Part shown: piece by piece, positions 10,521 to 63,640 of the stretch
How positions within the stretch are numbered: the stretch's first letter is position 1
Layout of the letters: the number at the start of each line of letters is the position of its first letter
Assembly: GCA_009602725.1 (NCBI GenBank)
Contig: WELB01000010.1
Coordinates: forward strand, 828,069 to 892,068
Reading direction: 5' to 3'
From: Spirogloea muscicola
Lineage: Eukaryota; Streptophyta; Zygnematophyceae; Spirogloeales; Spirogloeaceae
DNA: 64,000 bases
Notes under the pieces: generated by a model
The model's database searches: none
Told to the model about the DNA's origin: nothing
Seen by the model: only the letters and a program-made list of their open reading frames with translations
Translations under genes and position numbers: made by a program

Positions 10521-11420
10521 ATCCTCGATGGGATGCCCACCTGAGGAGGTCCAGTATGCCACAATGGATTCGATCGCCCTACTCATCGAACCTAAGGCAG
10601 AGAATCATGGAATGCAGGGGAGGACACAATACAGCGTCAAAGGAGAAAGAAGGCAACAAGGGGCCGATGGCTGTGAAAGGACAGCCCAGTCTAGAGAAGG
10701 TGCGCGGTGCGCATGGAATGGAAGCAAGGCCAAATTGAGCCAGTACACTATTTGCGCCCTTTGGACCTTGTCCATTCCTTATTAGAGAGAGGGACTCTTC
10801 CAGTAGAGGGTGATGGCTGTGATCCCTTATTGGGCTGGCCTTTCACAGCCATCGCCCCCTATTGGGGAAAATTTCCTACCCAGAGGAATGGGGCAAAGAA
10901 TGGGGCTAAACAAAGCTGAAGCCTAGAGTAGAAAGAATGTGGCTCTCCCAAAAGGGCGAGGGCTGTGAACAGCCAGCCCGACAGAAACTGACAAATATCG
11001 AAGGGGCCGAGAAGCGCTTTCCCAAGCTTGTAGGATAATCACTCAGTAGCCAAAAGTAGGGAGCCGCGAGGCAAAACGACTAGCCGCCGGAAAGCAATCC
11101 CCTTACAAATTAATAAGGTCTGAAAAGGGCCGGAAGTGGGGGCAGTGGGGCAGGCCTTCCGTACTTGTCAGGCGCCCAGGAGGCAGGCACTGGGCCTGCG
11201 TCCTGGCGCCGCCATAGCTGTTGGGGGCCAAGAGTAGAGGGCCATGGCTCTCATTGGCCAGCCCAAGAAAATGAATCCCAAAAAATTAAAGGGGCCAGAG
11301 AATCGCGAGAGCACACAGAAAGATTGGCCAGGGTTCGGGCCAGTCCGAAGCTTGAACAAGGTCTGAAAGGGCCGGAAGGCGCAGAAAGCACGAGAGCCAG
11401 CCCACAGAGAAGAGGAAGAT
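10521..11420. repeat. Cluster of retrotransposon 3'-UTR modules and hairpins
   Basis: No gene. The stretch contains the GC-rich module GCGCGGTGCGCATGGAATG (about 10702-10725) and copies of the GGCTGTGA..CAGCC hairpin near 10669, 10810-10857 (two in opposite orientation), 10966 and 11240. CTCTCCCAAAAGGGCGAGGG-type flanks resemble those of the better preserved copies at 11558 and 38106. Confidence 0.55.
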
Positions 11421-11530
11421 TTCGTGTATTTGAAACAAACGAAGGCCAAATGGCCAAGTACAAAGGCAAGCACATCTTAAGACCTACATCAGAGGCAGAG
11501 CCCTCGCTGCTGCCTCTGGCTCTGGCCAGG
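11421..11530 (-). mobile_element. LINE 3' end, minus strand
   Basis: Read on the minus strand, a piece of the conserved C-terminal tail (AGRALAAASG-type, about 11530-11495) is followed by the 3' UTR containing CTTGCCTTTGTACTTGGCC and ending in GTTTCAAATACACGAA at about 11421. The same terminal block recurs near 21063-21120, 43601-43655 and 62955-63015. Confidence 0.65.
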
Positions 11531-11557
11531 GGACCCGCTTCCAGGAACGAAGAAGTG

Positions 11558-11632
11558 GCTCTCCCAATGGGGGCAAGGGCTGTGAGAAGCCAGCCCGAAA
11601 AGAATTGACAAGGTTCGAAGGGGCCAAACTAC
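11558..11632. repeat. Hairpin module, well-preserved copy
   Basis: This block of about 75 bases is nearly identical to 38106-38182 (two or three differences by eye). It contains GGCTCTCCCAATGGGGGCAA, a hairpin with GGGCTG and CAGCCC arms, and GACAAGGTTCGAAGGGGCC. In more complete retrotransposon copies the same block lies in the 3' UTR; here it is solitary. Confidence 0.7.
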
Positions 11633-11694
11633 GAGCTAAGCAGCGACTGCGGGGCCTGAAGAGGCTATGGCAGAACGGGGGAGGATGGACCACT

Positions 11695-12075
11695 CGTAGT
11701 TACGAGTGAGGAGCCTCACATCCGACAGACTAGCTGCCGGTAAACTATCCCCCTGACGAAAGCCGGAGGCCGCAGCGAGAGCACGGCCAGCACGCAGATG
11801 CAAGGCGTGGGGACCAGGAACCCAGTCTCTCTGACCTGAGGCTGCTTAGCAGGGGTTACTGAGTGCTTCGTAGCTGCTTCGTTTCTTTATATTGTGCTTG
11901 TTGTTCTTCGTACTTCCCCTGGCCCCTTCTCGTCCTTTGTTCATCCATTTTTGGGCTGGCTTTTTCCAGCCCCTATCAGGCAGTACGTCCAGCAGCCAGG
12001 CTCTGACAACGGGCGAGCCCTTTCTTCTCGTAACCTACAGTAGATTGACCCGCTCAGTAACCACGAGTCAGCGCC
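11695..12075. mobile_element. Three LINE tail scraps in opposing orientation
   Basis: On the minus strand 11810-11695 reads as the conserved tail (LRAGRALAAASGFRQG, ending LLTR). Directly beyond it, 11810-11870 reads on the plus strand as the end of another copy (DLRLLSRGY-type, stop), followed by a 3' UTR with a GGGCTGG..CCAGCCCC hairpin at 11948-11976. A third scrap of tail on the minus strand ends near 12025-12060. The GC-rich sequence up to 12456 is unrelated to these. Confidence 0.6.
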
Positions 12076-18739: not shown

Positions 18740-19935
18740 GGTCTCTAGGACCTGCGAGTGAGCATGAAGGAGAGCCAATCTCTCTTGCTCCGACGACCTC
18801 TTCCGGTGGCCTCCACCATCTCCAGTCGCTTCATCCTGAGGGGCCAGGCTGTTTTAGCACCCGCCATAGCGGGTGTTGCAACAGGGAACCTGCCCTTCCA
18901 GCTTTCTCTAACCGCAGCACTACGTGACCTCTCGCGCTGCTTACCAACGCTTGCAGAGGGTCATGCAGGTTTTGCGGCATGGGCACGCTGTTCTGACAGG
19001 AAAGCGCAGGGCCTTCACTCTCACGCTGCGGACGTGCAGGCCGCCTCTGAATTGCAGGGACTGCTCAAGGACGATGGACGTGGCCTCACCCGGCTCCTCT
19101 CCATCAGCTCCCCAGGCGCGTCGGAGTGGTTAAATGCTCTGCCGATATGCGAGTCCCTTCGGCTCTCAGACAACCTGTTTCGTACCGCGGCCATCACCAC
19201 CTCGGCCTCCCCCCCCCTTGCTTGGCTGGCATCCGCCAGTGCGAGTGTGGCCACATTGCCGATGACAAGCTCGCCCTAGCTGCGCACATGCTGAGGTGTG
19301 CTGAGGGGGGTGAGCGCATTGCCTCCCACGACTTACTCAGGGATACAATGTTTGGAATTTTGCGAGAGGCGGGGTATCATCCGGCGATGGAGGTGTCCGG
19401 CATCATGCCAATCTCCTTCATGCGCGGCAAGCCACACGTGCGGCGTCTGGACGTGGTCGCCACCCCCCGGGGCGGTGGGCCTCGTCTGCTCCTGGACGTG
19501 GTACTGATCGACGCATACAAGGCTGGCGCACCCACGTCAACCGTGTCTGGCTGGGCCACATCCAGCGCGGAGCGCAAGAAGGAGCGGCACTACCAGGACC
19601 ATCCCCGAGGGGACCATCTTTACCCGTGTGCCGTGGATATCTACGGCGGCTACGGCGTGAAATGGTCCTCCCTGATCCAGCATCTGGCCCGGCTGGTTGA
19701 TGCGCGTCGTAAAAGTCGGGGGGGCAGCTTGGGCCACTCCAGCATTCCACAGGCCTTAATTGCATATTATAGAATGCGGCTCTTGCTTTATCTGCTGCGC
19801 TCGCAAGCATTGGCTCTTCATCAACGTGCAGGGCGCGCTCTAAGTCAGGCCTCCGGCTTTCGTGGCGGCGCTCCAGCTCCCCAAGTTAGCTTGTCCGATT
19901 TGTTTGTGCTCTCCCGTGGGTATCAATGTCACCTT
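18740..19935 (+). mobile_element. LINE: CCHC knuckle, restriction-like endonuclease and tail
   Basis: This is the best view of the C-terminal third of the retrotransposon protein in the group here called subfamily A. It runs from the linker after reverse transcriptase (TGNLPFQLSLTAALRDL; LLSISSPGASEWLNALP) through the knuckle CECGHIADDKLALAAHMLRC, then HDLLRDTMFGILREAGYHPAME, and the nuclease core RRLDVVATP, LLLDVVLIDA, ERKKERHY, whose D..D..K..Y spacing resembles the PD-(D/E)XK endonuclease of R2-like elements. It ends with ALHQRAGRALSQASGFRGG and LSDLFVLSRGY. One change of reading frame lies near 19150-19280, so the copy is not intact. Anything upstream of 18740 is truncated. Confidence 0.85.
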
Positions 19936-20019
19936 AGGCACCTTAATTTAGGTCTCTGTATTATGAAGCCTTGTTTAATTTGCACTCGCCTCTGCTTGAA
20001 CTGTGTATTGGCTTGAATT

Positions 20020-24589: not shown

Positions 24590-24914
24590 ACCCGGCGGGT
24601 GATACCTTTTACCCCCTGGCCATGGACATCCATGGGTGTTACGGGGGTCGGTGGTCCTCGTTACTTTCGCTGCTGGCATCTCAAGCTGACCAGCGGCGCC
24701 GGGAACAGGGTGCAGCCCTTCCCGGTGGCTCGGTGCCTTTGGGTCTTGTGTCCTGCTACCGTATGCGTTTGTCTATGTCGCTACAGCGTTCCCAAGCGCT
24801 TGCTTTGCATCGCCGCGCTGGTCGTGCCCTTGCAGCAGCCTCTGGCTTGCGCAGCGGGGTTGCTCTTCCTCCCCTCAGCTCATCTGACTTCCTACTGCTG
24901 ACACGGGGTTACTA
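24590..24914 (+). mobile_element. LINE C-terminal tail copy, longer
   Basis: One open frame gives GDTFYPLAMDIHGCYGGRWS (the end of the endonuclease domain), then YRMRLSMSLQRSQALALHRR and AGRALAAASGLRSG, ending SSSDFLLLTRGY and a stop at 24914. The 3' UTR that follows has a GGCTGGC..CAGCC hairpin near 24971 and ATATCAGCAGCCGC, as at 42340 and 42900. Confidence 0.7.
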
Positions 24915-25132
24915 AGAGCGCCCTGGCTGTCTAGCCTGTGGCTCCGTCATGAACACCTGTATGCATCTGGCTGGCTTTCACAGCCGCTCTTTTAATATCA
25001 GCAGCCGCTTGACTTCTCGGGCCTTCAGCTGCTCAACAGAGGTATCCTCTACCCGAAGTTACTGAGTGCTTCGGGTCACTTGATCCACGGTGTCCTTCAA
25101 AGCTTGCTCTGGCCCCCTCGATCATTAATTCT

Positions 25133-30988: not shown

Positions 30989-33900
30989 GGCGACGGTAGC
31001 CGGGCTGTGTTGTGGGCGAGGCCCGCCGCGTCCTCTGCCGTCGGGCGGCGCGCGCGGCGAGAGCGGCAGGTGCGCCGCCCGACTGGGCACAGGCAGCTCA
31101 CGAGGCCACCCTCGAGAAGTTGACGCGGGGGCGGGTGATGAGCGCTAGGGCGCGCAACGCGGGCTTAAACTGGCGGTGGGTCTGGCAGGTCGCTTCCAGT
31201 GGTGGCGTTTGAGTCATTGAAGCCCGTCTCAGGCCGTCACGGCGCGGCCAAGCGGGGCGCCGCCAAATGTGGCGGCACGGTGAGGCACCACCAGGAACGA
31301 AATAGCTCTTGATGACTTAGGCCATGGCTGTGAGGCGATGGCTGTGAGAGAAGCAGCTTCTCAAGAACGGGCGAAAGGCCGCCCTTCGCTCGCTCCGTAG
31401 CTGTGAGAGGCAATCTCAATTGCCATGAACATGGTCCGAACGAAGAAAGTGCTCGCCCATAGAGAAATAAGGCTGGCAAAGCCAGCCCAAAAAGAATGGA
31501 CAATGTCCAAAAGCCAAAGAGAGAAGTGCGCGCCCATAGAGAAGAGGGGCTGGCAAAGAGGTGCCGAAAAAGGACTACACTACAAAACACGAGACGATGC
31601 AGAGGGAAGCTCAGTACCCGCCGAAAGGGCCACCAACGAGAGAGCGTTTGACGACTCCCTCTGAATCCGAACCCAGTCGGGAGACCGGCTGTGCTTTACA
31701 CTAAAGGGATCACTTCTCCCTCCATCATTTGGCCCCATCAAACCTTTATCAAGTCTTTTTCGGGCTGGCTTTTCACAGCCCTTGCCCCATTGGGAGTGCC
31801 ACTTCTACGCCGTGGCCGACAGCTCTGTGTGACTGTTCGGCTCCGCCACTGGCGCTGCGCACCGAGCACCGGTCACCGCCAGCTTACGTCACCCTCGAAA
31901 CGGGCCAGTTGAGCCAAGAAATGTGCGCGCACCAGCCGAAGGCAACAGCCGACAAGGCAGCTGTCGGATGGTGCAATGGCACCGAGACAAAGGCGCGCCG
32001 TGCGCATGAAAATGCAAGTGAGGCCAAACTTCGAGCCTTACAGAAGTCCTGGTAACGGAGCGCCGCCGTCAGGCGGCGACTCCACCTTCGTGGGCAGCAG
32101 CTGTCCCCATGGGAAGCTGCCACGGACTCCCCGCAGCAGGCCCGCGGCGGCGGCTGCGGCGGCAGTCGGCAGCAGGGCTGCGCCCTTTTTGAGCTTCACC
32201 GGTCCAAACTTCCGTCTCCGGATCTCGGCGACCACTACGTGTTGACTTGAGGTTACTGAGCGGGTCAGCAATAGCAGCGGGTGATGTTTATCTGTCAATG
32301 AGCTTGCCGTTATACTTGCCCGCTCAGGCCCTCCATCACAATACACACTCCATTTTTCCATGAGGGCCGGGGTGCGAAGAGACCGGGAGCCCAGGAAGAG
32401 TGGGAGAATCTCCAGCGAGGGTGGTTACTTCTTCACACACGCTCGGACTACTTTTGCACAAGTTGCTGACTCAGCAATCTCGGCCCCAACCCATTCCCTT
32501 CACCTGGATTTTGGCGTGTGGGTTTGATTTGCTCGTTCTCCTAACAAATACAGTGTGCATCAGGTTGTATATGTAGATTAGTGCTCAGGGGTTCACAACT
32601 TCTGCCCGTCCAGCAGGCAAGCGATTCAGCATAACGAGCGATCAGCAGGCTCGGGCTTTCCCTCGGAACTCCCCTGTCCTGCCCCTGGACCTGTCGCACA
32701 TGACATGGTTCAGCTGTCAGCAAGTGCCTTGCATTTGCCAAGCACTAACGTCATCATGTGCGTGCTTGCATAGACAGGGACAGGACAAGAGTGTGTCAGT
32801 AACCAGTGCCAAGGCGGTGTGCATCTGCATCCTTCCCAAGAGGGGCGGTATGGAGATAAGGCTTCCTCTCCGTGGAGCAGTGCAGTTGTGAGAGCGCTTG
32901 AAACCTTTGGCAGAGCGGGCAAATGACAGACTCCGCATGACCAGAATGGCCAAACGACGACATCTTGGGTATGGCATGTTTGGCATCTTCCTCGTGGCGG
33001 GCCACCACACTGCCCTTGAGATGACGTCCACCCTTGAGATGACGTTCATCATGCTCATGCAGAATCAGGACACCGGACAATCAGGACCCCAGATAATGTG
33101 CATCGACCTGGTAACCATCATGCTTGTCGAAGCTTGCGCACCATGGTTGATTCTGGTAACAATGATGCTTCTCACCGCGGCAACCTGGTCGCAACGGCCA
33201 TGTAGGCGGGGCACGCGGTCGCCAAGAGTACACGGGGCAAGGAACTCAGTGCGCAGGAGAGGACTATGTTTAAGTGACCATATACAACCACTGGGCAATT
33301 CATATGGTGACTTGACTTCCTCCAGCAGCTTGCATGACAAGCAATGGCCCGATGGCAGGGCAGCAGGGTGAGCAGCCGGTCTTTACTGCCACGGGCTTGC
33401 TAGCTCTGGTGTAAGGCATGCGCCATTCCTCTTCACTGCAGCAAGCACAGGCTTTCGCAGTGCATTTGCGTTGCCCGTGCCTGCGCCTTAGAACATAAGC
33501 GGGGCGACTCCTTCCTGCTGCTAGACGTCTGAAAGTATGAACTAGAGCTTACTTCATAGCTCGCAGGACTAGCCCACTAAGCGCGTGGCGCTTTCATGTT
33601 GAAGTTTCCCCCTTGATACTTGTTAAGAGCTGCCCTGCCACAGCCACTACCTCGTCTCTAACATTGTTCGTTCTAGTTTGGGTTGGCCTTCCTGAAGAGC
33701 CTCTTTGCTGTCACCCGCTGATGTTTCTAGCCTTACCTTGGGCTGGCTTATCTCGGCCACTGCCCCTACGAGGGCCACTACCTCGACTCATGTGGCGTCC
33801 CAGTCCGGAGGCCCCCTAGAGGGCAAGCATGGATGCAACCACTGCTCTTCTGGTCTCGCTTGGGCTGGCCGTTCACTCCAGCTGCTGCAGGGAGCCACAT

Positions 33901-36960: not shown

Positions 36961-37330
36961 TGAGCTTCCCTCTGCATCGTCTGTATTTTGCAGTGTTTAG
37001 TAGTGTGGTCCTTTTTCCGGCTCCTCTTTCTTTGAACATTGTCCATTCTTTTTTGAGCTGGCTTTGCCAGTCCCTCTTCTCTATGGGCGACCACTTTCTT
37101 CTTTCCGGCAGCTAGTCTGTCGGACTTGAGGCTCCTCACTGGTAAGTACTGAGTGGTCCATCCTCCCCCGTTCTGACATCGCATCTTCAGGCCCCTTTGT
37201 AGCTGCTTAGTGCTTTTTAGGCCCCTCCATCATTTGGCCCCTTCGCACCATTGTCAATTCTTTTTCGGGCTGGCTTTTCAAAGCCCTTGCCCTCCTTGGG
37301 AGTGCCACTTCTTTACATTTGCAAATAGCC
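36950..37330 (+). repeat. LINE subfamily B 3' UTR and a second hairpin module
   Basis: After the stop: TGCATCGTCTGTATTTTGCA, CCTTTTTCCGGCTCCTC, CATTGTCCATTC and a hairpin (GAGCTGGCTTTGCCAGTCC, 37058-37076), then CTCTATGGGCG. A tail scrap on the minus strand (about 37105-37170) and another hairpin module (GGGCTGGCTTTTCAAAGCCC, 37268-37287) follow. Confidence 0.65.
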
Positions 37331-37359
37331 ATTGCCTTCCACCGTAAGAGCGGTCTCCT

Positions 37360-38030
37360 GTGAGAAGAAGTGCGCGCCCATAGAGAAGAGGGGCTGGCAA
37401 AGCCAGCTCAAAAAAGAATGGACAATATCCAAAGCCAAAGAAAGAGGAGCCGGAAAAAGGACTACACTACAAAACACTGCAGAAGACATAGACGATGCAG
37501 AGGGAAGCTCAGTACCCAGTACGAGTGAGCAACATCAGGTCTGAGTAGCTCGCTGCAGGGAAAGAGGCACTCCGCCGAGACCCAGAGGCGGCGGCCATAG
37601 CACGGCCTGCTCGCGTGTGGACGGCGTGGGCAAGGGAGCGTTGAAGCGATACGGCGAGGCGCATGCGGAAGACTTGTGCGAGCGAACCAGCGGCGTTGAA
37701 GCCGGGCATCGCCCAAAGCCCCGTGTACATCCATCGCCAGGGCCGCGAATTCATCCCCCACCGGGTGATTAGCATATTTTCGCTCCTTGCCCCGGGCCGC
37801 CTGGCCGACCGCGTGCCCTGCAAACGACGCCGACCTGGTGGGATTGGCGGAGTCGATGCAGTCAGTTGTCACCACATCAGCGATGATGCGGGGACCGCCG
37901 CCGGGCGGGATGGCGACCAGGTCGGCGCGTCGCGTATGGGGCTGGCCGTCCGCGCCCAGCTGGATGGGCATTATGGAGTTCTCCACCGCGACCTTAAAGC
38001 CAGCCTCCGAAAACACCCCCTGTGAGAGGC
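37360..38030 (-). mobile_element. LINE endonuclease, tail and 3' UTR (subfamily B)
   Basis: On the minus strand from 38030: GVFSEAGFKVAVEN, IMPIQLGADGQPHTRRADLV, GGGPRIIADVVTTDC, KERKYANHPVGDEFAALAMD, then after a frame change RMRLAVSLQRSLAHAVHTRA and GRAMAAASGSRRS. It ends in YSDLMLLTR near 37509. The 3' UTR runs to about 37360 with a 7-bp-stem hairpin (37391-37408) and GGACAATATCC. This copy contains the very segment deleted at 36937. It begins directly after a hairpin module at 38030. Confidence 0.78.
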
Positions 38031-38464: not shown

Positions 38465-38942
38465 ATGTGCAACCGAGAACCCGGAAGGGGCTCAAATGGG
38501 CAGCCGCGGCCCCAGGAGATGCGAGAGGCAGGGCGTCAAATGCCGTCCCGGGGCAGGGTGCCGGGGGGGGGGGAACCTCGTACCCGGGGCGGTGGCGGGT
38601 CGCCTCGCCCTGGCGCGGCGGCGGGTGGGGCGGCAGAACTCGCCACGTGGCAGCTCCGGGTGGAGCGAGGCAGGCGGTTCTTCGTACCGGGGGGGGGTTG
38701 GGGGGGCCCCCGACGAATGCTCGTGATTCGCCCGACGCCCCCGACGCCAGGCAGGGCCGCCTTTCCGATGATTGTTCGTGATCCCGGCGCCGACCGGGCG
38801 GCAGTCGTCGGCCGGGCCGGGGGTCCGCCCCCCCGGACAAACGTTCGTGATCCGCCCGACGGCCCCGACGAGAAGGCCCGCCGGCCCGAGCTGGTGGCAG
38901 CAGTCCCCCTCGGCCCCCCCCCGCCGCCGCCGCCGCCGCCGC
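38465..38942. repeat. GC-rich stretch with three direct repeats and a (GCC)n run
   Basis: Very GC-rich. The phrase TTCGTGATCCGCCCGACG occurs in three imperfect forms starting at about 38719, 38774 and 38843, each followed by CCGAC-rich sequence. A (CCG)n run ends at the single N (38943). It may be promoter or first-exon sequence of some gene, or unrelated sequence joined here. Confidence 0.55.
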
Positions 38943-48365: not shown

Positions 48366-49599
48366 GCCTGTTCCTCTTTCCACCACTGACTAGCAGAGCA
48401 CGCTGGACAGGGACGGAGCGTGTCCACCAGAAGCCCACGGCACGCCCAGACAACCATCTCAACCGAATCCCGCCATGTTGTGCAGAAGCCACTGGCAGCG
48501 CGGAGGCGGTAGCTACACTGAGGAGGTGATGCGGACGAGGCTCGCGCCTGGCGCGCGGGCGGAGGCTGCGGGCAGGCTCGAGCACGGCGCCGCACCGCAG
48601 CGACTGTTGCGACGGAAGCCTTGTCTGGTGGCACTTCGCCTTGTTCAGTCTTTTGTCGCTTGTCAGATATGCATGTGCTCACTCGGGGATATTAGTGTCC
48701 CCCTTAGCCAGCTCATTACCCAGTTAACAAATCATTTGTAAGGCTTGAATTGGCCTCCCTTTCAATTTCATGCGCACCGCGCGCCTTCTCTCTCTTAGTG
48801 GGCTGGCTTTTCACAGCCCTCCTCGCCACCTTCAATTTTCAGGAGAGCTGCTTTCTTCACCCGTGACTACTATTCATTCTTTCTTCTGGGCAGGCCAACC
48901 GCAGCCATCGCCCTCTACTGGAAGAGTCCATCCTGCGGAAGGAGGAAAGGCGGAACCAATGCTGAAGAGCTCTTCCACATTGGAAGCGGGAAGGCGCGCG
49001 GAGCGCATGAATTGAAAGTGAGGCCAATTTAAGCCAACACGTGTTCTGGCAGAATCTAGTGCAAAATACAAGGCTACTTAAAACAGAGCCCTATGCTAAG
49101 GTTCCTAAGGTAACAGGGTGACATTAGTATCTAAAGGAAGGGAAGTAGGATAGCAAGCTCATATAAAGGCCTTACGGCTCCTTCGTCGTTTGGCCCCTTC
49201 GAACCTTGTCACCTCTTTCCGCGCATTTGCTGCTGCCTCCGGATTTCGTCAGGGCGACATCGATCCGCCTGCAAGTTACTCTGACTTGCACTCACTAACT
49301 CGCGGTCACTAGGAGCCCACTTGCTGCCGGCTTAGCAATTAGTATCTTGCTTTTTGCGCCATCCGGCCCCTCCAGACCTTGTCCATTTTTTGGGGCTGGC
49401 CTCTCACAGCCACCAGTCAATTTGGAAGCGCTGTTTCTGTTTTCGGGCTGGCTTATCACAGCCCTTGCCCCGATTGAGAGAGCCACTTTCTCTTACAGCT
49501 CTTCGCCCCCTTTGGAGTTGCTTACATCTTACAACCATCGCCTTGACAAAGCTGTTCTCAATTGAGGAAGTGAGAAGGTAACAGCTCGTTCGAGTCTAA
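48366..49599. mobile_element. GPN2 upstream region and LINE tail scraps
   Basis: 48366-48600 is GC-rich GPN2 promoter side. At 48655-48780 a subfamily A end appears: SDMHVLTRGY-stop, TTAGCCAGCTCATTACC, then the CATGCGCACCGCGCGCCTTC module, directly followed by a GGGCTGGCTTTTCACAGCCC hairpin (48800). Another hairpin is near 48888 and the module in reverse at 48993. 49225-49315 encodes AAASGFRQGD and SDLHSLTRGH-stop. Two hairpins follow at about 49392 and 49444. No host gene was recognised. Confidence 0.6.
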
Positions 49600-49739: not shown

Positions 49740-52700
49740 GCGGCCGCCAAGAATCTGTTGGAACGACGAAAAAGGGAGGGCTCGCCCATAGAAAAAGAGG
49801 GGCTAGCAAAGCCAGCCCACAAATTAATTGGACATTGTCCGCCGGCCTCAAAGGGCCACAAAACAGTGCCAGGAAAGACAAAACTACACACCAAGACACG
49901 AAATGATGCAGATGGATGCTCAATAACCACGAGTGAGCAACAGCAAATCAGAATAACTCGAAGCAGGAAAAGCGGAACTCTGCCGAGACCCTGAGGCAGC
50001 AGCCATAGCGCGGCCAGCGCGCGTGTGGACCGCATGAGCCTGAGAGCGCTGGAGCGAGACCGCCAGTCGCATTCGAAAGACCTGAGCGAGGGAGCCAGCA
50101 GCATTCAAGCCTGGCGAACCCGGCCGCCGCTCGATGGCCCGCCGGGCAAGCTGCTGGAGGAGATCCAGCCAGCCACTGCCGAAGGCCCGTGAACGTCAAT
50201 GGCCAGGGCCGCAAAGGCATCGCCTGGAGGGTGGTCAGCGTACTTGCGCTCCTTACTCCGAGCCGCCAAAGCGACCGCGTGCCCGGCGAGCGTCGCCGAC
50301 TTTGCGGGGTTGGCGGAGTCGACGCAATCTGCAGTCACCACATCTGCGATGATACGCGGACCTCCTCCGGGCGGGATGGCAACTAGGTCAGCGCGGCGGG
50401 TGTGAAGCTGTCCGTCGGCGCCCCCCTGGATGGGCATGATTGTCGTATTTTCCGATGCCACGTGGTAGCCGGCCTCCAGGAACACATCCTGCATGGCGTC
50501 TTGCAGAAGGTCGTGTGAACCGGTCCGCTCGCCCCCGTGCGCACAGCGGAACATGTAGGCAGCAGCGCCGCAGGGTCATCGTGGTGGGCACCGCACTCGC
50601 ACTGTTAGATCCCGACGAGGCAGGGAGGGAGGAGGCCCAGAAGCCGGTGGACCGCCGTTTTTAAAACCTCGTCTGGCATTGTCAGCGCCGCGTAGAGTGG
50701 GAGCGCTGACAACCACGCCGCCGCCCCGGGGGAGGAGGCGGAGAGGATCCGGGCGCGCCCTTGAAGGTCGTGCGGCGGAAGGAGCTCCACCACCTGGTCA
50801 TAGGCCGCTTTGTCCACCAGCGCAGTGAAGCGGGCCTGGGCCCGCAGGTCGGGGGTGTGTGCGAGGTGGCCAGACGGAACGACCTGCTTCGACCTGTCGG
50901 AGTGGGCCGCCAGGAGCCCGTCCCGGGCAGCTCGGAGAGCAGCCTGGAAGGGCAACGAGCCGCTCTCCACTTCAGCTACCACCCGCTCCAAGGCGCGGTT
51001 GCCGTGAGCTTGAAACCGCTGGCAGATGGGGGCGGCGACCTGGGCCCAGCTGCCCAGGTAGGCGGCCTCGCAGGCGCAGGCGACTGGGCGGCAGCCCAAA
51101 CCGCCACGGCTAACGGGCAGGCTAGCCTGGAGCAGCGCGGCTGGCGTGGTGAGGAAGCCGGGGTGTTGGAGGAGAGTGGCAGCGCTCCCCAGAATGCCAG
51201 TGTCAAAAGCCTCGTACGCCGCATCACCGCCGGGGAGGGAGGGAGGACGCAAGCCAAGTAGTGCGGACGCTGGGCAATGCACCTGGTCAGCAAAGTGGTC
51301 GCCAGCTGCATGTCTTGCAGCGTGTGGAGACGGTCCGCCGGCCGGAGGTGCTCCAGCTGGGGAGCCTATGGGGGCGCCGAGGAGGTGAAGCCCCCGGCTG
51401 GTGTCTGGCAGCCCGGGGGCAGGCACAGGTGGGCTGGCAGGCCCTCGGGAGACCAAGCACTGCATTTGGCTGCGCAGATGCCCAGGCCGATCGCGCCCAG
51501 CAGCACTTCGAGGGTGGCAGAGGCTGCCACGACGTCGTCTGGCGGCCCCACCAGCGTGGTGTCGTCCGCATACGTGGGGGCGAGAACGCCAGGGTGAGCC
51601 GCGACCGTTGCCAGCAGCGCACGGTTGTGAGCGAGCGCGTAGTAGAGCCCCGCCAGCGGATCCCCGTGGCGCGAGCCTGTGGAGGAATGGAGGACCTGTG
51701 GAGGAATGAAGGACCTCCACCCCACCGTGCCCTGTCCGCCAAACAAGTCGCTTGGCTGTCCGTAGCCCAGCCTGAAGAAGGGTAGGAGGCTGGGGAAGGC
51801 CGCCCGCAGCTCCTCAGCGATGACATCCCGGTCTGCGCCGTTAAAAGCGTTCCGGACATCTACCGCCAAGGCCATCCATCCGGGGTTCAGGTCCAAGGCG
51901 GCCCGGATGCCGTGCACGACCACCTCACCGCCGCTCCGCAGCCCCCGCGCCGAACTGGTGGGGCGCCAGGTGTGCCTGGCCAGCCCTGCGTGTTGTTGCC
52001 ATAGCGCGCGTCCCACCAGGCCGTAAAGCACTTGGCTAACGGCAATGGGCCGGACCCCCCCCCATTGGCCTTGCCGAGGGCCAGCAGCGTGCTGGATGAC
52101 GATGACGCCGCGAATGCTGGCCGGGACCTGGTCGCGAGCAAGGAGCTGGCACGCCTGGTGGAGTGCCTGGAAGTCACTTGGTTCTCCCTCCAGGAAGAGC
52201 TCACGGAGATGCTCAGTGAGCATGTGTGACGGGCCTCCAGCAGCTGCGCGGCGCCTGCTCTGTAGAGCCTGCCGAAGAGCGTCGGCCTCGAGGGCCACCT
52301 CCTCCGGCGGTGCGAAGGTGGCCAGCCACGGAGGCAGGGGGGAGCGGGTCTCAGGGTGCAGGGACTCCAGGGCCGCCCGTGTGGCTGCGTTGGATGACGC
52401 CAGCACCGAGTCATCCAGGACCTGGACTGCCCTGGACAACTTGCCCGCATGACCGGAGCGCAATGCCCGGCGGACGTTGGCGGCCCTGTCTGGCGCTGCC
52501 TGCACATCACCTCGGTTTGCTGCCAACGCCACCGCTGCATCGTGGCGCTCAAGAAGCTCCTCCCAATGCCCGCTCTCGAACAACTGGACGCGCTCCAAGA
52601 GGGGCTGCTGGCCCTGCCAGCGGCCGTCGTGGGGTGCGCGCCCGAGCAGCAGCCGGGGGAAGAGGGGAGACTGCTTCCAAGCCGCCTCGTCCCGGTGGTC

Positions 52701-54143
52701 CCTGACAATCCGCTGCATTGCCGGGCGGAGCACGCGGCGAATGTGCGGGCGCACCCAGCGGGGCACATGGCGGAGGAGCGGGAGGGCCGCCAGGCGGTGG
52801 ATGGCAGCCAGGTCGAGGCCGGCCAGCCACTGCCAGTGTTGAGGCGTGGGAGGGGTTGGCGCGGGAGGGACAGGCCTGCCCGGTCTGCCCTGGCGGCCGC
52901 CCGCAGCCGCTGCGCTCCGCGCCTGCGCCGCGCGGTTGTTATTGTGCGCGCAGGCGCGCTCGTGGTTGACCCGGCCTGACCGCGTGGTGAAGGTCGTCTG
53001 GCAGTGCTGGCACAGCAGTGGGTCGGGCGTGCGAGGTGGGGGCGAGGGCGGTGGAGCTGGTGCGCTCGGTGCAGGCGGAGGCGGCGGTGGAGAGGGCGGC
53101 GCCGAGGGCGCCGACGGCGGGGAGGGCGGCTCGAGAGGCGGGATGGTGCATGGCTGGGAAGGCGGAAGCGCAGACGAGGGAAGCGGCGGCGAGGTCGAGG
53201 GGGGTGGCTGGCTCGGCGGAGGTGGACTCTGGGGTGGCGGTGGCGGCGGCGGCGGCGGCGGCGCCGGTGGTGACGGCGGCAGCGGCGGCGGCGACGGTGG
53301 TGGGGGCGGCGGCCCTGGGGCGGGAGACGATATATGCTCCTCCATGGTCTGCTCCTGAGGTGAGGCTGCCAGGACCGTGGTGATGGGGCCGCAAGCCGCG
53401 AGGGCCGCATCGGCTGGCTGGCACGGCGAAGGTAGACTATGGGGTGGCGGTGACGGCAACGGCGGGGGCGGAGGTGACGGCGGCGGCGGCGACGGCGGTG
53501 ATGACGGCGGCCGGGCGGGAGGCGATATATGCTCCTCCGGGATCTGCTCCTGAGATGCGGCTGCCAGGACAGTGGCGGTGGGGTTGCGGGCTGCGGCGGC
53601 CGCAGCGGGCGTCGAGCCAGCGGGGCTGGGCCCCTTGCAGTAATTCCGGTGCGAGGAGACACCGCGGGAGTAGCGAAACCCCGCGGACAGGTTGGGCACG
53701 GCACGCGCGCGGCTCCGCAGGCGGGGAAGACGCCGGCGGGAGAGATGGGGGGGGGCGCAGGTGGGGGCAATGGCGCTGGGAGGGGGAAAGGCGGAGGAGG
53801 CGGCGGCGGAGGTGGCGTGGTGGCGGCATGGAAGGCGGAGAAGGCGAGGGACCGCTGCGCCCAAGCGAACTTGGCCGGGGGAAGTTCGGGACTCCGGCTC
53901 CGAAGGTGGCGCTGAGAACGCGCGGGTGGGGCGGCGGCGGGCGGCACGGCGGCGGCGGGAGCGACGGTGACAGCGAGGGCCGGCGCAGGGGCAGGGTCGG
54001 AAGGGGGCCTGCACGCCGCCGCGAACCCCATGGCGGGGCGCCGCCGGCGACGGTGCCGGCGGCGGCCCGGGGTTTAGGAGGGGTGGCGGCGGTGGCGGCG
54101 GCGCCCGCCATGCCCAAACACAATGGACAATGTCCAAACCCAA
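49740..54143 (-). mobile_element. Long non-LTR retrotransposon copy (R2-like architecture)
   Basis: The longest copy. A frame open from 54143 to 51366 (925 codons) has a Pro-rich N-terminus in which a block (VLAASPQEQTMEEHIS) occurs twice, about 53560 and 53390; then a C2HC finger CQHCQTTFTTRSGRVNHERA plus C (about 52998-52930), a long linker, and reverse transcriptase with LAVDVRNAFNGAD (motif A, about 51866-51830), GSRHGDPLAGLYYAL and the catalytic YADDTT (51574-51560). The next frames give the linker (LLQASLPVSRGGLG; LPFQAALRAARDGLL), CECG knuckle, RRADLVAIPPGGGPRIIADV, KERKYADHP and the tail ending SYSDLLLLTRGY at 49920. The 3' UTR to about 49740 includes a GGGGCTAGCAAAGCCAGCCC hairpin. 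At least three frame changes (near 51400, 50590 and 50150) break it. No apurinic-type endonuclease was seen. Confidence 0.88.
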
Positions 54144-54580
54144 AAGACAAAATGACTACACTACAAAACACGAGACGATGCAGTTGGAAGTTCAGTACCC
54201 GCGAGGAAGAAGGACGCTTCCAGGACGCGCGGTCCGCCTGGCGGCCCCGGGGCAAGAGAGAAGGGCTCGCCCATTGAGGATCAGGGCTGGGTAAAGCCAG
54301 CCCAGAAAAGGATGAACAAAGGGCGAGAAGGGGGCCAGGGGAAGTACGAAGAACAAGCACTAAAACGAAACGAAGCAGCTACGAAGCACTCAGTAACCCC
54401 TGCTACGCAACCTCAGGTCAGAGAGACTGGATTCCTGGAAGAGAGAAGGGCTCGCCCATTGAGGATGGGGGCTGGAAAAAGCCAGCCCAGAAAAGAATGA
54501 ACAAAGGACGAGAAGGGGCCAGGGGAAGTACGAAGAACAACAAGCACAGAAAAGAAGCGAAGCGGCTACGAAGCACTCAG
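54144..54580. repeat. Retrotransposon 3'-UTR pieces abutting the long copy
   Basis: 54100-54210 on the minus strand is a subfamily B 3' UTR (GGACAATGTCC, TACACTACAAAACACGAG). It joins directly to the Pro-rich start of the long element, so the apparent start codon at 54143 may belong to this foreign UTR. Two near-duplicate modules with hairpins follow (54282-54302 and 54465-54487), each with GAACAAAG..CGAGAAG and an antisense LLSRGY end. Confidence 0.6.
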
Positions 54581-55169
54581 TAACCCCTGCTAAGCAGCCT
54601 CAGGTCAGAGAGACTGGGTTCCTGGAAGCGGTTCCCCTGGCCAGAGCCAGAGGCAGCAGCGAGGGCTCTGCCTGCACGCAGGTGCAGCGCGCGGGCCATA
54701 GACAGCGAGGGCAAGGAGCGCAAGTACGCGGACCACCCTGCTGGTGATGAGTTTGCGGCACTGGCGATTGATTTGCACGGGGCTTTCGGCGGTCGCTGGC
54801 TGGATCTCCTCCAGCGGCTTGCCCGTTAGGCCATTGCCCGGCGGCCGGGTCAGCCAGGGGCGCTGCCCGGCTTCAAGGCGGCCGGCACGCTAGGCGCAAG
54901 TATTCCGCATGCGGCTGGCGGTCTCGTTGCAGCGATCCCTGGCTCACGCCGTCCACACGCGAGCAGGCCGTGCTATGGCTGCTGCATCTGGGTCTCGGCG
55001 GAGTACCTGTTCCCCTGCAGCGAATTACTCGGACTTGATGTTGCTCACTCGCGGGTACTGAGCTTCCATTTTCATCTTCTCGTGTCTGGTTGTGTAGTTT
55101 CTGTTTTCGACACCCTTTTTTTGGCTTGTGGATATTGTCCATTCTTTCTGGGCTGGCTTTTCCCGGACG
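54581..55169. mobile_element. Opposed LINE tails
   Basis: On the minus strand 54705-54585 reads LRAGRALAAASG-type tail ending LRLLSRGY. From about 54707 the plus strand encodes KERKYADHPAGDEFAALAID, RMRLAVSLQRSLAHAVHTRA, GRAMAAASGSRRST and YSDLMLLTRGY-stop (55060), interrupted by a frame change, then the subfamily B 3' UTR with CATTCTTTCTGGGCTGGC to about 55165. Confidence 0.7.
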
Positions 55170-55339
55170 CGGCGTCACTGGCGGCTCACATGCTCCGATG
55201 CGCACGGGGAGGGGAGCGGAGCGGCTCACACGACCTGCTCCGGAACGCGATGTTCGGCATATTTGTCGAAGCCAGTTACACTGTGGCGCTGGAGAACTCC
55301 AGCATCATGCCTCTGACTGCTGGGGCGGACGGCCGCCTC
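55170..55339 (+). mobile_element. LINE knuckle/endonuclease start, cut at a single N
   Basis: The plus strand gives ASLAAHMLRCARGGERSGSH, DLLRNAMFGIFVEASYTVAL and ENSSIMPLTAGADGRL, then stops at N 55340. What follows is the SufE gene in the same frame by chance. Confidence 0.75.
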
Positions 55340-55340
55340 N
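55340..55340. other. Single N at a probable assembly join
   Basis: Retrotransposon coding sequence on the left, SufE exon sequence on the right. The N keeps one open frame across the join, giving a false LINE-SufE fusion protein. Confidence 0.85.
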
Positions 55341-56651
55341 CGGCGCTGCAGAAGATCGTGCGGGGCTTCCAGGGGGTCCCGGACCCCCGCATGCGCTACC
55401 AGCAGCTGCTCTACTACGCCACCAAGCTCAAGCCGCTGGGCAAGGAGCACCAGGTGGCCGCGAACAAGGTCACCGGCTGCGTGTCGCAGGTGTGGGTGCT
55501 GCCGGCGCTGCGCGACGGCCGCATCTACTTCCAGGCTGAGTCGGACTCGCAGCTCACCAAGGGCCTCGCGGCGCTCCTGGTGGAGGGCCTGAGCGGCGCG
55601 ACGCCGAAGGAGGTCCTCCGGATCACCCCCGACTTCATCCAGCAGCTCGGGCTGAAGCAGAGCCTCACGCCCTCCCGCAGCAACGGCTTCCTCAACATGC
55701 TCAAGCTCATGCAGAAGAAGACGCTGGAGCTCACCATGGAGGCCGAGTGCGCAACCGAGACCGCCGACGCCGCCGCGGTCACCGCTGCCGCCGAACAAGT
55801 GAGGCCCAGCCCCACAGACGATGCGGCGCACGAGCAGAGTGCTGGCTCCACTGGTGCGTCGCCGTCATCAGGGAGCAATGGAACCCCTGTACGCGATGAG
55901 GTTGGCAGGGGCGCCGAGCAGGCTGGTCAGAGCAGCCAGCCAAGATACGAGGCCATTCGTGTCAAGGTATTATTTGAGCATGTCCTTGTGATCTGCATTG
56001 ATTTCCCCCCTCCCCTCAAAGTAATGGTCGGCAGTCTCGAACTTAACAGCCCCTCATATATGCGTGCATGTAGTAATACGCGTTGATTGCTACAAAGCTG
56101 CATTGTCTTCTGCTTTAATATTACCGTCAGGCAGAAGCAGGTGCATTCTGCCTGACTGACACTAATATAATTACTACCTCTGCTCGCCCTTCAGCTTGAG
56201 AAGGCACTGCAGCCAAGTCAGTTGGTTGTAGAGGATGTGTCGCACCAGCATGCTGGTCATGCTGGGGTCGATGCTGGATCGTCTGAGACCCACTTTAAGT
56301 AAGCATGAACCTCCTATTGCTGACTCCTACTCATTTGAAGAGTGCTCTATCTCGTTTCTTAATAGCTCCTGTATTTTTCTAGGCACCCCATGCTGTGTGT
56401 CCGAAGCACTTACAGTTCTCCAATCTGATAATGGGAAAGCTTCTCTTCAAGGATGCATGGTGGCTGTGATGATGTGCAGCGTGAAGGTGGTGTCCAAAGC
56501 ATTTACAGGCAAGACCGCTGTGCAAAGGCACAAGGTTGTGTATGACCTCCTAGATGCGGAGTTGAGGAGTGGCCTCCACGCACTCTCGCTCGTGACAAAG
56601 ACCCCCAGCGAGGTGGAGCGTGACCTTGAACGCTCTAAGCCGCCGCTATAG
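55341..56651 (+). CDS. SUFE1: Plastid SufE-BolA fusion (SUFE1-like), 5' end missing
   Basis: SufE accepts sulfur from the plastid cysteine desulfurase NFS2 for Fe-S cluster assembly; BolA domains bind monothiol glutaredoxins. Exon 1 (55341-55966): KIVRGFQGVPDPRMRYQQLL, YYATKLKPLGKEHQVAANKV, the active cysteine in TGCVSQVWV, SDSQLTKGLAALLVEGLSG and LGLKQSLTPSRSNGFLNML, then a Ser/Ala-rich linker. Exons 2 (56195-56298) and 3 (56480-56651) form the BolA domain: ALQPSQLVVEDVSHQHAGHA, ETHF, VKVVSKAFTGKTAVQRHKVV, YDLLDAELRSGLHALSLVTK. Joins are in phase and GT-AG. This domain order is that of Arabidopsis SUFE1. The transit peptide and first residues are missing at the N (55340). Confidence 0.94.
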
Positions 56652-60601: not shown

Positions 60602-62819
60602 TAGTGTGCTGCATTAGACAGTTGATTGACTGGCCCTATTTGCTCAAGATTGTGACAAATATCTGGGCCTCCTTTATTGCCTGGAAGGGGGGTATGTCAA
60701 TGCTTGTTCTTTGTGGGGCGAGACTTGTGCAAGTGTCAGTTGCAATGAGATCCATGCTTTTGTTTGAAATTGGGGCAAGGCTGTGGGATAGAAGCACCTC
60801 TGAGCAGCTAACACTCCAGAAACATCGTGAGGATCACTGGAAGAGAGCGGAGGGCGTTTCATCTTTGCCCACAATCAAGAATATGCATGATGTTGTTGGC
60901 TCGGGTATCTGCTGGTGCAACCATGTTGAAGGTTGTTCAGTCAGGCACGTAGACGGCACTAAATTGGACTTTTCTTGTGTTTAGAGCCAAGTGACGATGT
61001 GTATACCCTGATCTTATGGCTAGGTGGCAGCCTGATTTGCTTGCTGGCTCGAATCAAGGCCGCCTGCATATGATACTCCCAGCCGTGACTCAGATGCCCA
61101 ATGCAGGATGTCGGCATCTGCCAATACTGGGATGTCTGACATTCCAAGCAACGCCCCATAAACAATCAGTACCGTGCAGAATCTTCCACAATGGCGTGAT
61201 AGTGACCTGGTAAGCGTTGAGGTGGCGGCGAGGAAGAGATGTTGACAGCATCTTACGGAGAGGCACAGAGTCTGCCTGACTAGCCTCAGATATGCAAGCT
61301 TGATTGGCTTATATGACAGACTGGAAAGATGCCAAGCTACCCTAGCCTAGGAAAAGGACGTCTCCCAAGTTCCTGGCAAGTGATCCACTTGCTTACTTAC
61401 TACCAACTACTCGCCGAACACCAGCTGAAGTTCGCAAGTCCACAATGCAACCGGGAAAATGGCAGCCTGTTGATATACTAGGCCAGATCAGGTTCGTTGC
61501 GCTTCAAATAGGAAGGCCCGCGATAGTGTGCTGCCTACATATCCAGGAGTGCTTGTTTGCTCGTATTTTGGTGTCGCAAGTGACCCAGTGCAAGGCTGCA
61601 ACTTGTGGTCAACAAGGGCATGCTGACTGCCTGCTGTTTGAGAATGACGAGGCTGCAAGCCTTTCCCTGTAAGAATGTTACTCCCATTCGCAAGGAAGCT
61701 CCGAAAGTGGAAATGATAATTGCTGTCTGTTTGACTCAAGCAAGAGCTTAGATGCGAGCTACATGTGAGTAATGCATCCATCCGTGCAAAGCTCCTCACA
61801 TAAAGAGTGTTGCACAGGCCCTCTGCCTTCGTCAATGCCCTTCTATCGTCGTAACTGGAGCAGTATTCAAGCCTCGGGACCACCTGATATTGGCGCTGAT
61901 TGGCTGCAGCATAAGCAAGGGCCCTCTGGCTCGAGGCTTCTTGCAAAACAGCCATTAGATATGACACTAGATATCAGTGCAGTGAGGCTCTGTGCACAGT
62001 GGGAGAGGCTCTTTGCTGCCAGCCAAGGAAATGTTGGGCTGAAGGTGGCCATCACGGTATGGAGGACAAAGGGGGCAGGCCGCTGACATAATAACTCGGA
62101 TCTTCGCTTAATATTCTCGGATGAGCCCCTGTTTGAAAGCGATTGGAAGGAGCCTGGGCCCCCATAAGTGACAGTGCCTGTGAACTCCCGACCGAATGTC
62201 ATATGAATTCAAGTTGGGCATGAGCTCAAGCCAGGAAAGGCGAAGGCTTGATGCAGCACCAGAGAAGAGGCTACTGGACGCATCTCAGCGGCAGCTACCA
62301 CTTTGCCTGATTCCTGTTTGCCTGTTTGCCTGTTTGCTTGTGTTGCTGGCAGTCCCCATGAAAAGTTGATGGCTATTGCAGAGTAAAGCCGTATGGATGG
62401 TCTCACTCGACTCGACGTTTACTCATAGCGATGACCATTATCCTGCCTCGGAGTGACAAAGTCAACAAGGACAGACCACCTGGTAGCAAGATGGCCAACA
62501 CCGTGAGCTTCCTATGCAGGGTGTCCCAATAGCGCTGCGTCTTAGGGTCTTGCCCGCCATGTCGCAGCCGTGCACGACGGGCGTTAATGCTCGTGCTTGT
62601 TGTGATGCCTGGAAAGCACCAGTACCATCGACGTACTGCAATTTTGAGCGTTTCCTCACTCAACCGTACAGTGAGGCGCGAGTTGAGCACGAGACGATTT
62701 GGAGGCCACATCAAGCCCATACACTGTCCACGCAAAAGCTGGTGCATAGTTGGTGCCATATAAAGCAAAGCGTAGACTGAAAGGGGGGCTAAGGCAGAGA
62801 AAGCGTTTCTGGGGTGTGT
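60602..62819. other. Region without a recognised gene
   Basis: The first few hundred bases are RPL3 3' flank. Two fairly long frames, minus 61967-61488 (159 codons) and plus 61772-62086 (104 codons), overlap and show no family motif. A minus frame 62202-61867 starts MTFGREFTGTVTYGGPGSFQ, also unrecognised. No retrotransposon module is seen until about 62820. A lineage-specific gene or non-coding RNA is possible but unsupported. Confidence 0.35.
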
Positions 62820-63300
62820 GTTAAAAGATGCAGGGCCTGTGTGGCCAAGTACGAAGGCAAGCACATTGACAAATGTACGTCACCTGCTGCTAAGCTGACC
62901 CGCTCAGTAATCACGAGTCAGCACGTAGAGGTCGCTAACTGATAAGAGGAAAAAGTCGTGTATTTGAAACAATCGAAGGCCAATATGGCCAAGTACAAAG
63001 GCAAGCACATCTCATGACGTAGCAGCTAGCATCCAGCAGCTTCTGGAGCTGCTAGAGGAGTGAGGCAGCAGCAGTGGCAGGAGGAATGGAGGGATGGGGG
63101 GGGGAAGAGGGCCGGAAGTGCCAGTTGGGACCTTGTCGACCTGTCCTGCTAGGGCTGCTAGAGGAGGAGAGGTCGCTAACTGATAAGAGGGGGGAGATGG
63201 CGTGACGTGAAAAGCTTGCTGAAGAGGGGTCTCAGTACGCACGAGTTGTAATATACACGTTCGACAGGCTAACTTGGGGAGCCTAAGCCTGAGCACCGCC
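62820..63300 (-). mobile_element. LINE tail carrying a later insertion with 23-bp target duplication
   Basis: On the minus strand the host copy is a subfamily C tail: SDLYVLTRGY region (about 62940-62900) and 3' UTR (to about 62835). It is interrupted by a 218-base insert (62950-63167) flanked by an exact 23-base direct repeat (62927-62949 and 63168-63190). The insert's left end is the same family's 3' terminus (CGTGTATTTGAAACAA, then CAAGTACAAAGGCAAGCAC), preceded by AAAAAGT, so it is itself a short 5'-truncated copy or a derived element. Another minus-strand tail follows at about 63225-63310. Confidence 0.75.
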
Positions 63301-63640
63301 ACGGAAGCGGGTAAAAAAGCTCAGAGCCCAGCACGCTGAAACCCTATAGCTTGGGAGGGCCGCGGAGGGCGGGGAAGCGCGCGCCGGCACTTCGCAATGG
63401 GCACCTTGCAACGGCCGGCGTGACATGAGAGAGAGGCGGCGCGCGGTGCGCAGGAAATTAAAGGGTGGCCAATCCAAGCCATACATTGTTTAGGCAAAAA
63501 TGTTGCAAAAGATGTGAAGTAACCCCATCCAAATGGGGCGAGGGCTGTGAAATCCAGCCCGAATACTGGAAGAGTCGTTTTCCGAGAACAAAGATTGGAG
63601 AAGATGTAGCAGCGGCGAAATGGGACTTTACTGGCAGCTC
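63301..63640. repeat. UTR modules and hairpin
   Basis: It contains the module GCGCGCGGTGCGCAGGAAAT (about 63438) with CCAATCCAAGCCATACATTG and a hairpin GGGCTGTGAAATCCAGCCC (63543-63561). No gene. Confidence 0.55.

What the first reader, a model, noticed from the sequence alone, without database searches (positions are those of the whole stretch)
10669..63561. A short hairpin repeated about 45-50 times, in 3' UTRs of several LINE subfamilies and as solo copies
GGGCTGGCTTTTCACAGCCC and variants (7-bp stem with AAA loop at 31471-31487; 6-bp stem with 8-base loop at 31762-31781) recur in both orientations in nearly every intergenic block. The arms stay complementary while the loop and inner stem vary, as expected of a selected RNA structure. 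It sits in the 3' UTR of otherwise different LINE subfamilies (A at 48800, B at 37058, C at 42892). I infer that it is the stem-loop the reverse transcriptase recognises, and that solo modules are short parasites using it.
Basis: partly seen in the sequence, partly recalled or inferred. Interest (0 to 1): 0.8.

Follow-up and report, generated by a model that had tools for sequence, protein, structure and literature searches.

The report
Shared hairpin tail of LINE retrotransposons
A short hairpin repeated some 45 times in this stretch is part of the conserved tail of several related families of jumping genes, probably the handle by which their copying enzyme grips its RNA; this is a known kind of feature, although the paired mutations that would prove the fold are not seen.

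Summary
The repeat is real. A profile search finds 42 copies and three more sit in another subfamily. The hairpin is the middle of a 65-80 nt module: [CCCCTTCGRACCTTGTCCATTCTTTT]-[GGGCTGGCyttTCaCAGCCC]-[tyGCCCCcattGGGAGAGC]-ACTTCTTC. In 15 of 42 copies it lies 60-111 nt after the stop codon of a LINE-like ORF ending SDLxLLTRGY*; a 55-115 nt band holds 16, shifted controls average 0.74, at most 4. Between subfamilies the hairpin is 79% alike (random 53%), the UTR just upstream 50% (shuffled 48%). That is what a functional 3' tail should look like.

The arms are conserved as sequence and do not covary. The hairpin at 48800 is not in the UTR of LINE A; it belongs to a module that A interrupts. 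Tails A and D have other ends. Solo copies can be 5'-truncated tails; one 41-nt solo has a 7-bp target duplication. A lead: some LINE 3' ends abut the hairpin's 5' base more often than chance.

The parts
51372..54155 (-). ORF with reverse transcriptase motifs (APTYADDTTLVG), proline-rich N-terminus and a CxxC...H...H stretch; the least truncated LINE copy seen in the window
   Evidence: RVT_1 E=0.0033, below Pfam's curated cut-off; YADD found; translation; PDB sequence searches found no related polymerase
50108..50575 (-). Downstream part of the same LINE copy: RLE-like domain (RRADLVAIPPGGGPRIIADVV...KERKYADHP)
   Evidence: a trimmed homologue (19213-19725) was modelled at pLDDT 62.8; R2 protein at Foldseek rank 3, E=0.081, with TDP2 structures above and below it: weak
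49766..49968 (-). 3' end of that copy (subfamily B): SDLLLLTRGY* + UTR + hairpin (arm at 49818) + 3' end
37027..37107 (+). B-type module, hairpin GAGCTGGC-TTT-GCCAGTCC, then ATGGGCGACC
37357..37437 (-). B-type module
31436..31516 (-).
31734..31814 (+).
37239..37319 (+). C'-type module, 111 nt after a LINE stop codon
38098..38178 (-). C'-type module
54251..54438 (-). C-type truncated LINE 3' end (second unit of a head-to-tail pair), module with 7-bp stem
54439..54628 (-). C-type truncated LINE 3' end (first unit of the pair; units 90.6% identical)
11549..11813 (-). 265-nt 5'-truncated C' copy inserted in a C copy, with 8-bp target duplication CCAGGAAC (11541-11548 and 11814-11821)
10784..10824 (-). 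41-nt solo right half of a module (starts in the hairpin loop), inserted just 5' of another module's hairpin, with 7-bp duplication CCTTATT (10777-10783 and 10825-10831)
49195..49497 (+). C' module split by an E-type LINE 3' end (about 49220-49436): left half 49195-49219, hairpin and right half from about 49441; decayed duplication, read by eye
48630..48852 (+). Module split by an A-type LINE 3' end (tail 48742-48791): left half near 48633-48656, hairpin 48800-48819; decayed duplication, read by eye.
24860..25020 (+). F-type LINE 3' end: LLLTRGY*, hairpin GGCTGGCTTTCACAGCC at 24969-24985, other flanks; further F copies at 366-382(-) and 42894-42910(+)

Best explanation
The hairpin is the middle part of a 3'-terminal tail of about 65-80 nt, shared by several subfamilies (B, C, C', E; hairpin alone in F) of one lineage of non-LTR retrotransposons, probably of the restriction-like-endonuclease type, in a eukaryote that is probably of the green lineage. 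Shown: position after the ORF's stop codon, conservation across subfamilies whose adjacent UTR is unalignable, and target duplications at two clean insertions of 5'-truncated copies. Inferred: this tail is what the element's own reverse transcriptase grips to start target-primed reverse transcription, by fold, by sequence or both. The solo copies would be cDNAs that stopped early (5' truncation) or modules cut in two by later insertions, without a separate parasite.
For: LINE identity: YADD ORF with an RVT_1 match E=0.0033, a conserved C-terminal domain, 29 copies of the ORF's 3' end at E<0.01. Placement: 15 of 42 arms lie 60-111 nt after a stop codon; in a 55-115 nt band 16 are counted (the 16th is 48800, explained by the A insertion), shifted controls mean 0.74, max 4 in 2000 trials. 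Constraint: between-subfamily identity hairpin 0.79, left 30 nt 0.66, right 30 nt 0.64, C-terminal codons 0.66, upstream UTR 0.50 (shuffled 0.48; random 20/30/40-mers 0.53/0.54/0.55), 15 representatives; nearly unchanged without the chimeric 38248 and the unassigned 10979 (hairpin 0.77, UTR 0.51). Stability: mean fold z of modules -1.25 against -0.01 for 42 random 81-nt windows; hairpin pieces alone -1.66. Insertion: target duplications CCTTATT and CCAGGAAC.
Against: No covariation above shuffles; RNAalifold gives no consensus pair. Sliding the 3' partners by +2 or +3 columns even gives higher covariation scores (0.122, 0.143 against 0.067), though fewer paired cells (34.8%, 43.5% against 76.1%). 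Conservation of the hairpin is inflated because copies were found with a model that contains it, and the representatives were chosen for having it; the two flanks stand only about 0.1 above random. The RVT_1 match is below Pfam's cut-off, PDB sequence searches found no related polymerase, and the RLE fold match is weak. Tails A and D of related elements lack the hairpin, so it is not universal for the lineage. No relative outside the window was found, so nothing tests it in another genome.
Confidence: 0.6

Rival explanations
1. The tail matters as primary sequence or as a short protein-binding motif, and the ability to fold is incidental to a G+C-rich near-palindrome.
For: The 5' arm stays constant even where the 3' arm no longer pairs (outer pair G-C 20, G-A 15 of 42); no covariation.
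Against: Subfamilies differ in stem length and loop (8 bp/3 nt, 7 bp/6 nt, 6 bp/8 nt, 5 bp/8 nt), yet 32 of 42 copies keep 5 or more pairs between the arms.
Confidence: 0.3
2. The module is also, or instead, a preferred DNA target: these LINEs insert into the tails of earlier copies, at the 5' base of the hairpin, which builds nested and tandem tails.
For: 3 of 15 A tails end within 20 nt upstream of a same-strand hairpin (shifted controls: 0 of 5000 reach 3; jittered: 1 of 5000); 3 of the 33 modules with a readable 3' end do (6 and 113 of 5000). Three split modules have the left half upstream and the hairpin downstream of the insert (10777/10832, 48656/48800, 49219/49441; the second left half was found by eye).
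Against: The pattern was noticed before it was tested; D tails 0 of 12. Only three cases have both halves, and the left half was not found for the A tails next to 10687 and 49624. A looser site preference (TTCC/TTCGG/TTGCC near the 3' junction in 22 of 40 against 77 of 338 control pyrimidine runs, motif chosen post hoc) or tandem duplication could explain part of it.
Confidence: 0.25
3. Shared ancestry only: fragments of one old LINE 3' end decaying neutrally, with no constraint on the hairpin.
For: Many copies are degenerate, changes in the stem are nearly all one-sided, and covariation equals shuffles.
Against: Neutral decay should not leave the hairpin at 0.79 and the neighbouring UTR at background between subfamilies; subfamilies B and C keep distinct, well-formed stems.
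Confidence: 0.15
4. Independent short parasites (SINEs) carrying the LINE tail.
For: 27 of 42 copies lack a clear LINE stop codon 60-111 nt upstream; SINEs with LINE tails are known in Chlamydomonas (PMC3747384, passages).
Against: No tRNA was found (bacterial mode) and no RNA family match. At least 8 of the 27 are explained by another LINE tail ending within 50 nt upstream. A shared 5' end was looked for only by eye.
Confidence: 0.08

Closest known systems
3' tails of stringent-type LINEs (ZfL2-1/ZfL2-2, UnaL2, SART1)
   Same: Short stem-loop or essential tail close to the 3' end of the element; in the zebrafish LINEs bound by the element's own protein (PMC4176376 abstract; PMC3747384 passages).
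   Different: No binding data here; no compensatory changes seen, whereas a plant L1-lineage tail shows them (PMC3747384 passage); up to three small inverted repeats in a row; the 3' end is a CTTC/CTCT run instead of poly(A) or TGTAA repeats.
R2 and R2-like RLE retrotransposons, and R2 SIDEs
   Same: RT and a probable RLE downstream of it; in R2, 3' sequences are needed for TPRT and short internally deleted copies occur (PMC3414825 abstract).
   Different: No link to rDNA was seen; clade not established; the RLE call rests on motif and a weak fold match.
RandI/Dualen LINEs and SINEX SINEs of Chlamydomonas
   Same: Green-algal LINE tails shared with short elements; pyrimidine-rich 3' repeats such as (CTTT)n in SINEX-2 (PMC3747384 tables in the passages seen).
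   Different: Dualen encodes both APE and RLE (PMC4640811 introduction); no APE domain was hit in the 30 frames scanned against Pfam here, which are not all frames; no sequence comparison with RandI could be made.
Zepp clusters of Coccomyxa/Chlorella
   Same: LINE copies nested in one another (PMC3446292 abstract and passages).
   Different: Zepp lies in one cluster per chromosome and ends in poly(A) (PMC3747384 table passage); here copies lie among host genes across the window.

Membership tests
Stringent-type LINE 3' tail with stem-loop | Element is a LINE with RT | tested here: met
   YADD ORF, RVT_1 E=0.0033 (below curated cut-off) and 29 copies of a conserved ORF end; met, but weakly for the RT domain itself
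Stringent-type LINE 3' tail with stem-loop | Stem-loop within the 3'-terminal part of the UTR | tested here: met
   15 of 42 arms 60-111 nt after the stop; the module ends a few dozen nt downstream
Stringent-type LINE 3' tail with stem-loop | Compensatory changes in the stem between families | tested here: not met
   no excess over shuffles; power is low because the arms hardly vary
Stringent-type LINE 3' tail with stem-loop | Element protein binds the tail and needs it for retrotransposition | not testable with these tools
   needs binding or retrotransposition assays
RLE-encoding non-LTR retrotransposon (CRE/R2/R4/NeSL/HERO/Utopia) | Cys-His knuckle plus PD-(D/E)xK endonuclease C-terminal to RT | tested here: inconclusive
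   CxCG...H...C and R-x-D...DVV...K motifs (motif recognition from memory); model of pLDDT 62.8; R2 at rank 3, E=0.081, prob 0.72, TMq 0.43; TDP2 at ranks 1-2; 0 matches at E<=0.001
RLE-encoding non-LTR retrotransposon (CRE/R2/R4/NeSL/HERO/Utopia) | Placement by RT phylogeny | not tested
   no reference RT set at hand; no relatives found in viral contigs
SINE | Own 5' head with RNA polymerase III promoter, shared by the copies | tested here: inconclusive
   no tRNA found (bacterial mode) and no Rfam match; no shared 5' end seen by eye, not tested systematically
Histone mRNA 3' stem-loop or another Rfam family | Match to the family's covariance model | tested here: not met
   no match at gathering threshold in the whole window; none at E<=1 in 36900-38500
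Target-specific LINE | Most copies at one target sequence | tested here: inconclusive
   excess of A tails at hairpin bases, 3 of 15, but 12 of 15 A tails, 30 of 33 modules and 12 of 12 D tails end elsewhere

The most novel reading that the evidence does not exclude
A LINE lineage whose 3' recognition module doubles as its insertion address: the same short hairpin sequence that marks the RNA for reverse transcription also marks earlier copies in DNA as preferred landing sites. New insertions then pile into old tails, in several subfamilies at once, and spare genes.
Probability: 0.15. Interest if true: 0.65.

Novelty: new member of a known kind. Interest (0 to 1): 0.35.

Why it matters
If right, it adds a densely sampled natural series of 3' tails (stems of 5 to 8 bp on a nearly constant 5' arm) in what looks like an RLE-type LINE. 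The nested insertions offer a check on whether tail and target recognition are linked. As it stands it is an ordinary LINE tail, well documented in one window.

Tried and rejected
Covariation of the hairpin: tested on 42 aligned copies and rejected as evidence. Histone-type 3' stem-loop and other RNA families: no Rfam match (whole window at gathering threshold; on 36900-38500 only). Helitron 3' hairpin: considered, not tested directly; the constant distance from a LINE stop codon speaks against it. RT-stalling at the hairpin: four right-half fragments start in or at the hairpin loop, but one of them (31557-31522) reads as an internal deletion when compared by eye with other B copies, so I drop this. 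Relatives elsewhere: viral contigs and bacterial/archaeal genome contigs gave nothing. No genome is held for the window. A phage search with 48600-49100 gave nothing. A first AlphaFold model of the long frame was poor (pLDDT 47) and was replaced by a trimmed one. The 3'-flank motif TTCC/TTCGG/TTGCC is kept only as a post hoc lead. Rows dropped: 9 of 42 modules whose profile match ended before position 60 were left out of the 33 used for the 3'-end test, and the flank-motif count used 15 A tails and 25 of 42 modules. The Pfam scans covered 30 frames, not all.

Literature: searches (one search found no paper). Of the papers cited I saw abstract and outline (PMC4176376, PMC3414825), abstract, outline and introduction (PMC4640811), abstract and passages (PMC3747384, PMC3446292). 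I did not search specifically for a LINE tail acting as its own target beyond, so I make no claim that it is unpublished.
Full report
WHAT IS THERE. The exact string of the finding recurs 18 times with up to 3 mismatches, against 0.03 expected. An iterative profile search seeded with four copies finds 42 copies at E<0.01, 19 on the + and 23 on the - strand. What recurs is longer than the hairpin. It is a module of about 65-80 nt, with a left part CCCCTTCGRACCTTGTCCATTCTTTT (which often holds a small inverted repeat GGACnTTGTCC), the hairpin, a right part GCCCCcattGGGAGAGC and a pyrimidine end ACTTCTTC or CCTTCTCTC. Three further hairpins with other flanks (366-382 -, 24969-24985 +, 42894-42910 +) look like a separate subfamily, F. 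Subfamily letters are mine, assigned by eye.

WHAT IT BELONGS TO. The window is eukaryotic: matches to pyruvate kinase, sortilin and SufE, with coding pieces broken up as by introns (by eye). The pyruvate kinase reads like a plant or green-algal one; that is from memory, not from a call. A LINE-like element runs on the - strand from about 54155 to 49766. It has an ORF with a YADD motif and a sub-threshold RVT_1 match, E=0.0033, followed by a Cys-His stretch and a conserved domain with the look of a restriction-like endonuclease. A trimmed model of that domain (pLDDT 62.8) has an R2 protein at Foldseek rank 3, with the highest probability of the 50 rows shown (0.72) but E=0.081; ranks 1 and 2 and many other rows are TDP2, and no match reaches E 0.001. 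So this is suggestive only. The ORF ends in SDLxLLTRGY*; 29 copies of this end are found at E<0.01.

PLACEMENT. In 15 of 42 copies the hairpin's 5' arm starts 60-111 nt after such a stop codon, with no other tail between. One of the 15 rests on a weak ORF-end hit (E=0.02, copy 10979), and one (38248) looks chimeric by eye. Counting a 55-115 nt band gives 16 (the extra one is 48800, see below); shifting all arms along the window gives a mean of 0.74 and at most 4 in 2000 trials. So the hairpin is a 3' UTR feature of subfamilies B, C, C' and E. Of the 29 ORF ends, 15 have an arm 55-115 nt downstream, the A copy before 48800 included. Others carry tail A (15 copies, mini-hairpin GCGC-ACC-GCGC, end CCTTCTCTC) or tail D (12 copies), which do not contain it.

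CONSTRAINT. With 15 representatives that hold both the ORF end and the module, mean identity between subfamilies is 0.79 in the 20 nt of the hairpin, 0.66 and 0.64 in the 30 nt on either side, 0.66 in the last 40 nt around the ORF end, and 0.50 in the UTR upstream, where shuffled sequences give 0.48; random 20-, 30- and 40-mers give 0.53, 0.54 and 0.55. Without the two doubtful copies the hairpin is at 0.77 and the UTR at 0.51. The terminal module is therefore held while the neighbouring UTR is saturated. Two cautions: the copies were collected with a model that contains the hairpin, and representatives were picked for having it.

IS THE FOLD SELECTED? Not shown. On 42 aligned copies 76.1% of cells pair, against 75.5% (sd 0.7) in shuffles, reached by 140 of 500; the covariation score is reached by 68 of 500, pairs with changes on both sides by 387 of 500. 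Against slid partners the true register pairs better (76.1% against at most 57.7%), but its covariation score is lower than at +1, +2 and +3. RNAalifold predicts no pair. The 5' arm is nearly constant (27 of 42 exact); changes fall mostly on the 3' arm. The outer pair is G-C in 20 and G-A in 15. Modules fold better than their shuffles (mean z -1.25, random 81-nt windows -0.01; hairpin pieces -1.66), and 32 of 42 copies keep 5 or more pairs between the arms, but homologous copies are not independent. The stems of subfamilies differ (8 bp/3 nt, 7/6, 6/8, 5/8), which is compatible with a kept hairpin but also with a kept sequence.

SOLO COPIES AND TARGET DUPLICATIONS. A 41-nt right half at 10784-10824(-) is flanked by CCTTATT on both sides, and a 265-nt truncated C' copy at 11549-11813(-) by CCAGGAAC. 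These are clean insertions of 5'-truncated tails with 7-8 bp duplications. Two more (A into a module near 48800, E into a module near 49220-49436) show decayed duplications, read by eye. The 48800 case corrects the finding: the A element ends at about 48791 and the hairpin belongs to the interrupted module. Of the 27 copies without a stop codon 60-111 nt upstream, 8 have another LINE tail ending within 50 nt upstream. I saw no shared 5' end among solos, but did not test it systematically.

A LEAD. Tail A ends within 20 nt upstream of a same-strand hairpin in 3 of 15 cases (shifted controls reach this in 0 of 5000, jittered in 1 of 5000) and modules in 3 of 33 (6 and 113 of 5000); tail D in 0 of 12. 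Three modules are split there, with the left half on the far side of the insert. This could mean a preference for inserting into older tails. The pattern was seen before it was tested, the numbers are small, and a looser preference for TTCC-like sites at the 3' junction (22 of 40 against 77 of 338, post hoc) may be part of it.

COMPARISON. Stem-loops near the 3' end that the element's own protein binds are established for stringent-type LINEs (PMC4176376, abstract), and LINE tails shared by short elements are recorded in Chlamydomonas (PMC3747384, passages). Most RLE-type LINEs are reported as target-specific, and transposons are among the known targets of non-LTR elements (PMC4640811, abstract and introduction). 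Nested LINE clusters are known in Coccomyxa (PMC3446292, abstract and passages). The finding fits among these as one more member, with the mechanism inferred and the fold unproven.

VERDICT. Observation largely right, one of three named LINE contexts wrong, structural claim not supported by covariation, no need seen for separate parasites. Interest 0.35.

Noticed in passing
window 48742-48791 (+) and 14 other places: Tail A: 15 copies of a different LINE 3' end, GGCTTGAATTGGCCTCCC...CATGCGCACCGCGCGCCTTCTCTC, with its own mini-hairpin GCGC-ACC-GCGC.
   Followed up: partly
window 43652-43603 (-) and 11 other places: Tail D: 12 copies of a third LINE 3' end, TGTGCTTGCCTTTGTACTTGGCCATTTGGCC...CAAATACACG, in two variants.
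   Followed up: partly
window 10822-10786, 31349-31331, 31557-31522, 35270-35236 (all -): Four module right halves that begin in or at the hairpin loop, without the 5' arm; at least one looks like an internal deletion.
   Followed up: partly
window 54830-56083 (+): The open frame holding the SufE domain runs on upstream across a LINE 3' end (ORF-end hit 55014-55063); the true start of the gene was not determined.
   Followed up: no
window 19188-19911 and 20071-20794 (+): Two A-type LINE 3' parts lie head to tail, 71% identical, the second starting shortly after the first one's tail (20010-20055).
   Followed up: no
window 22523-22605: Tandem array of a 12/24-bp unit (AATCTGACAGGA).
   Followed up: no
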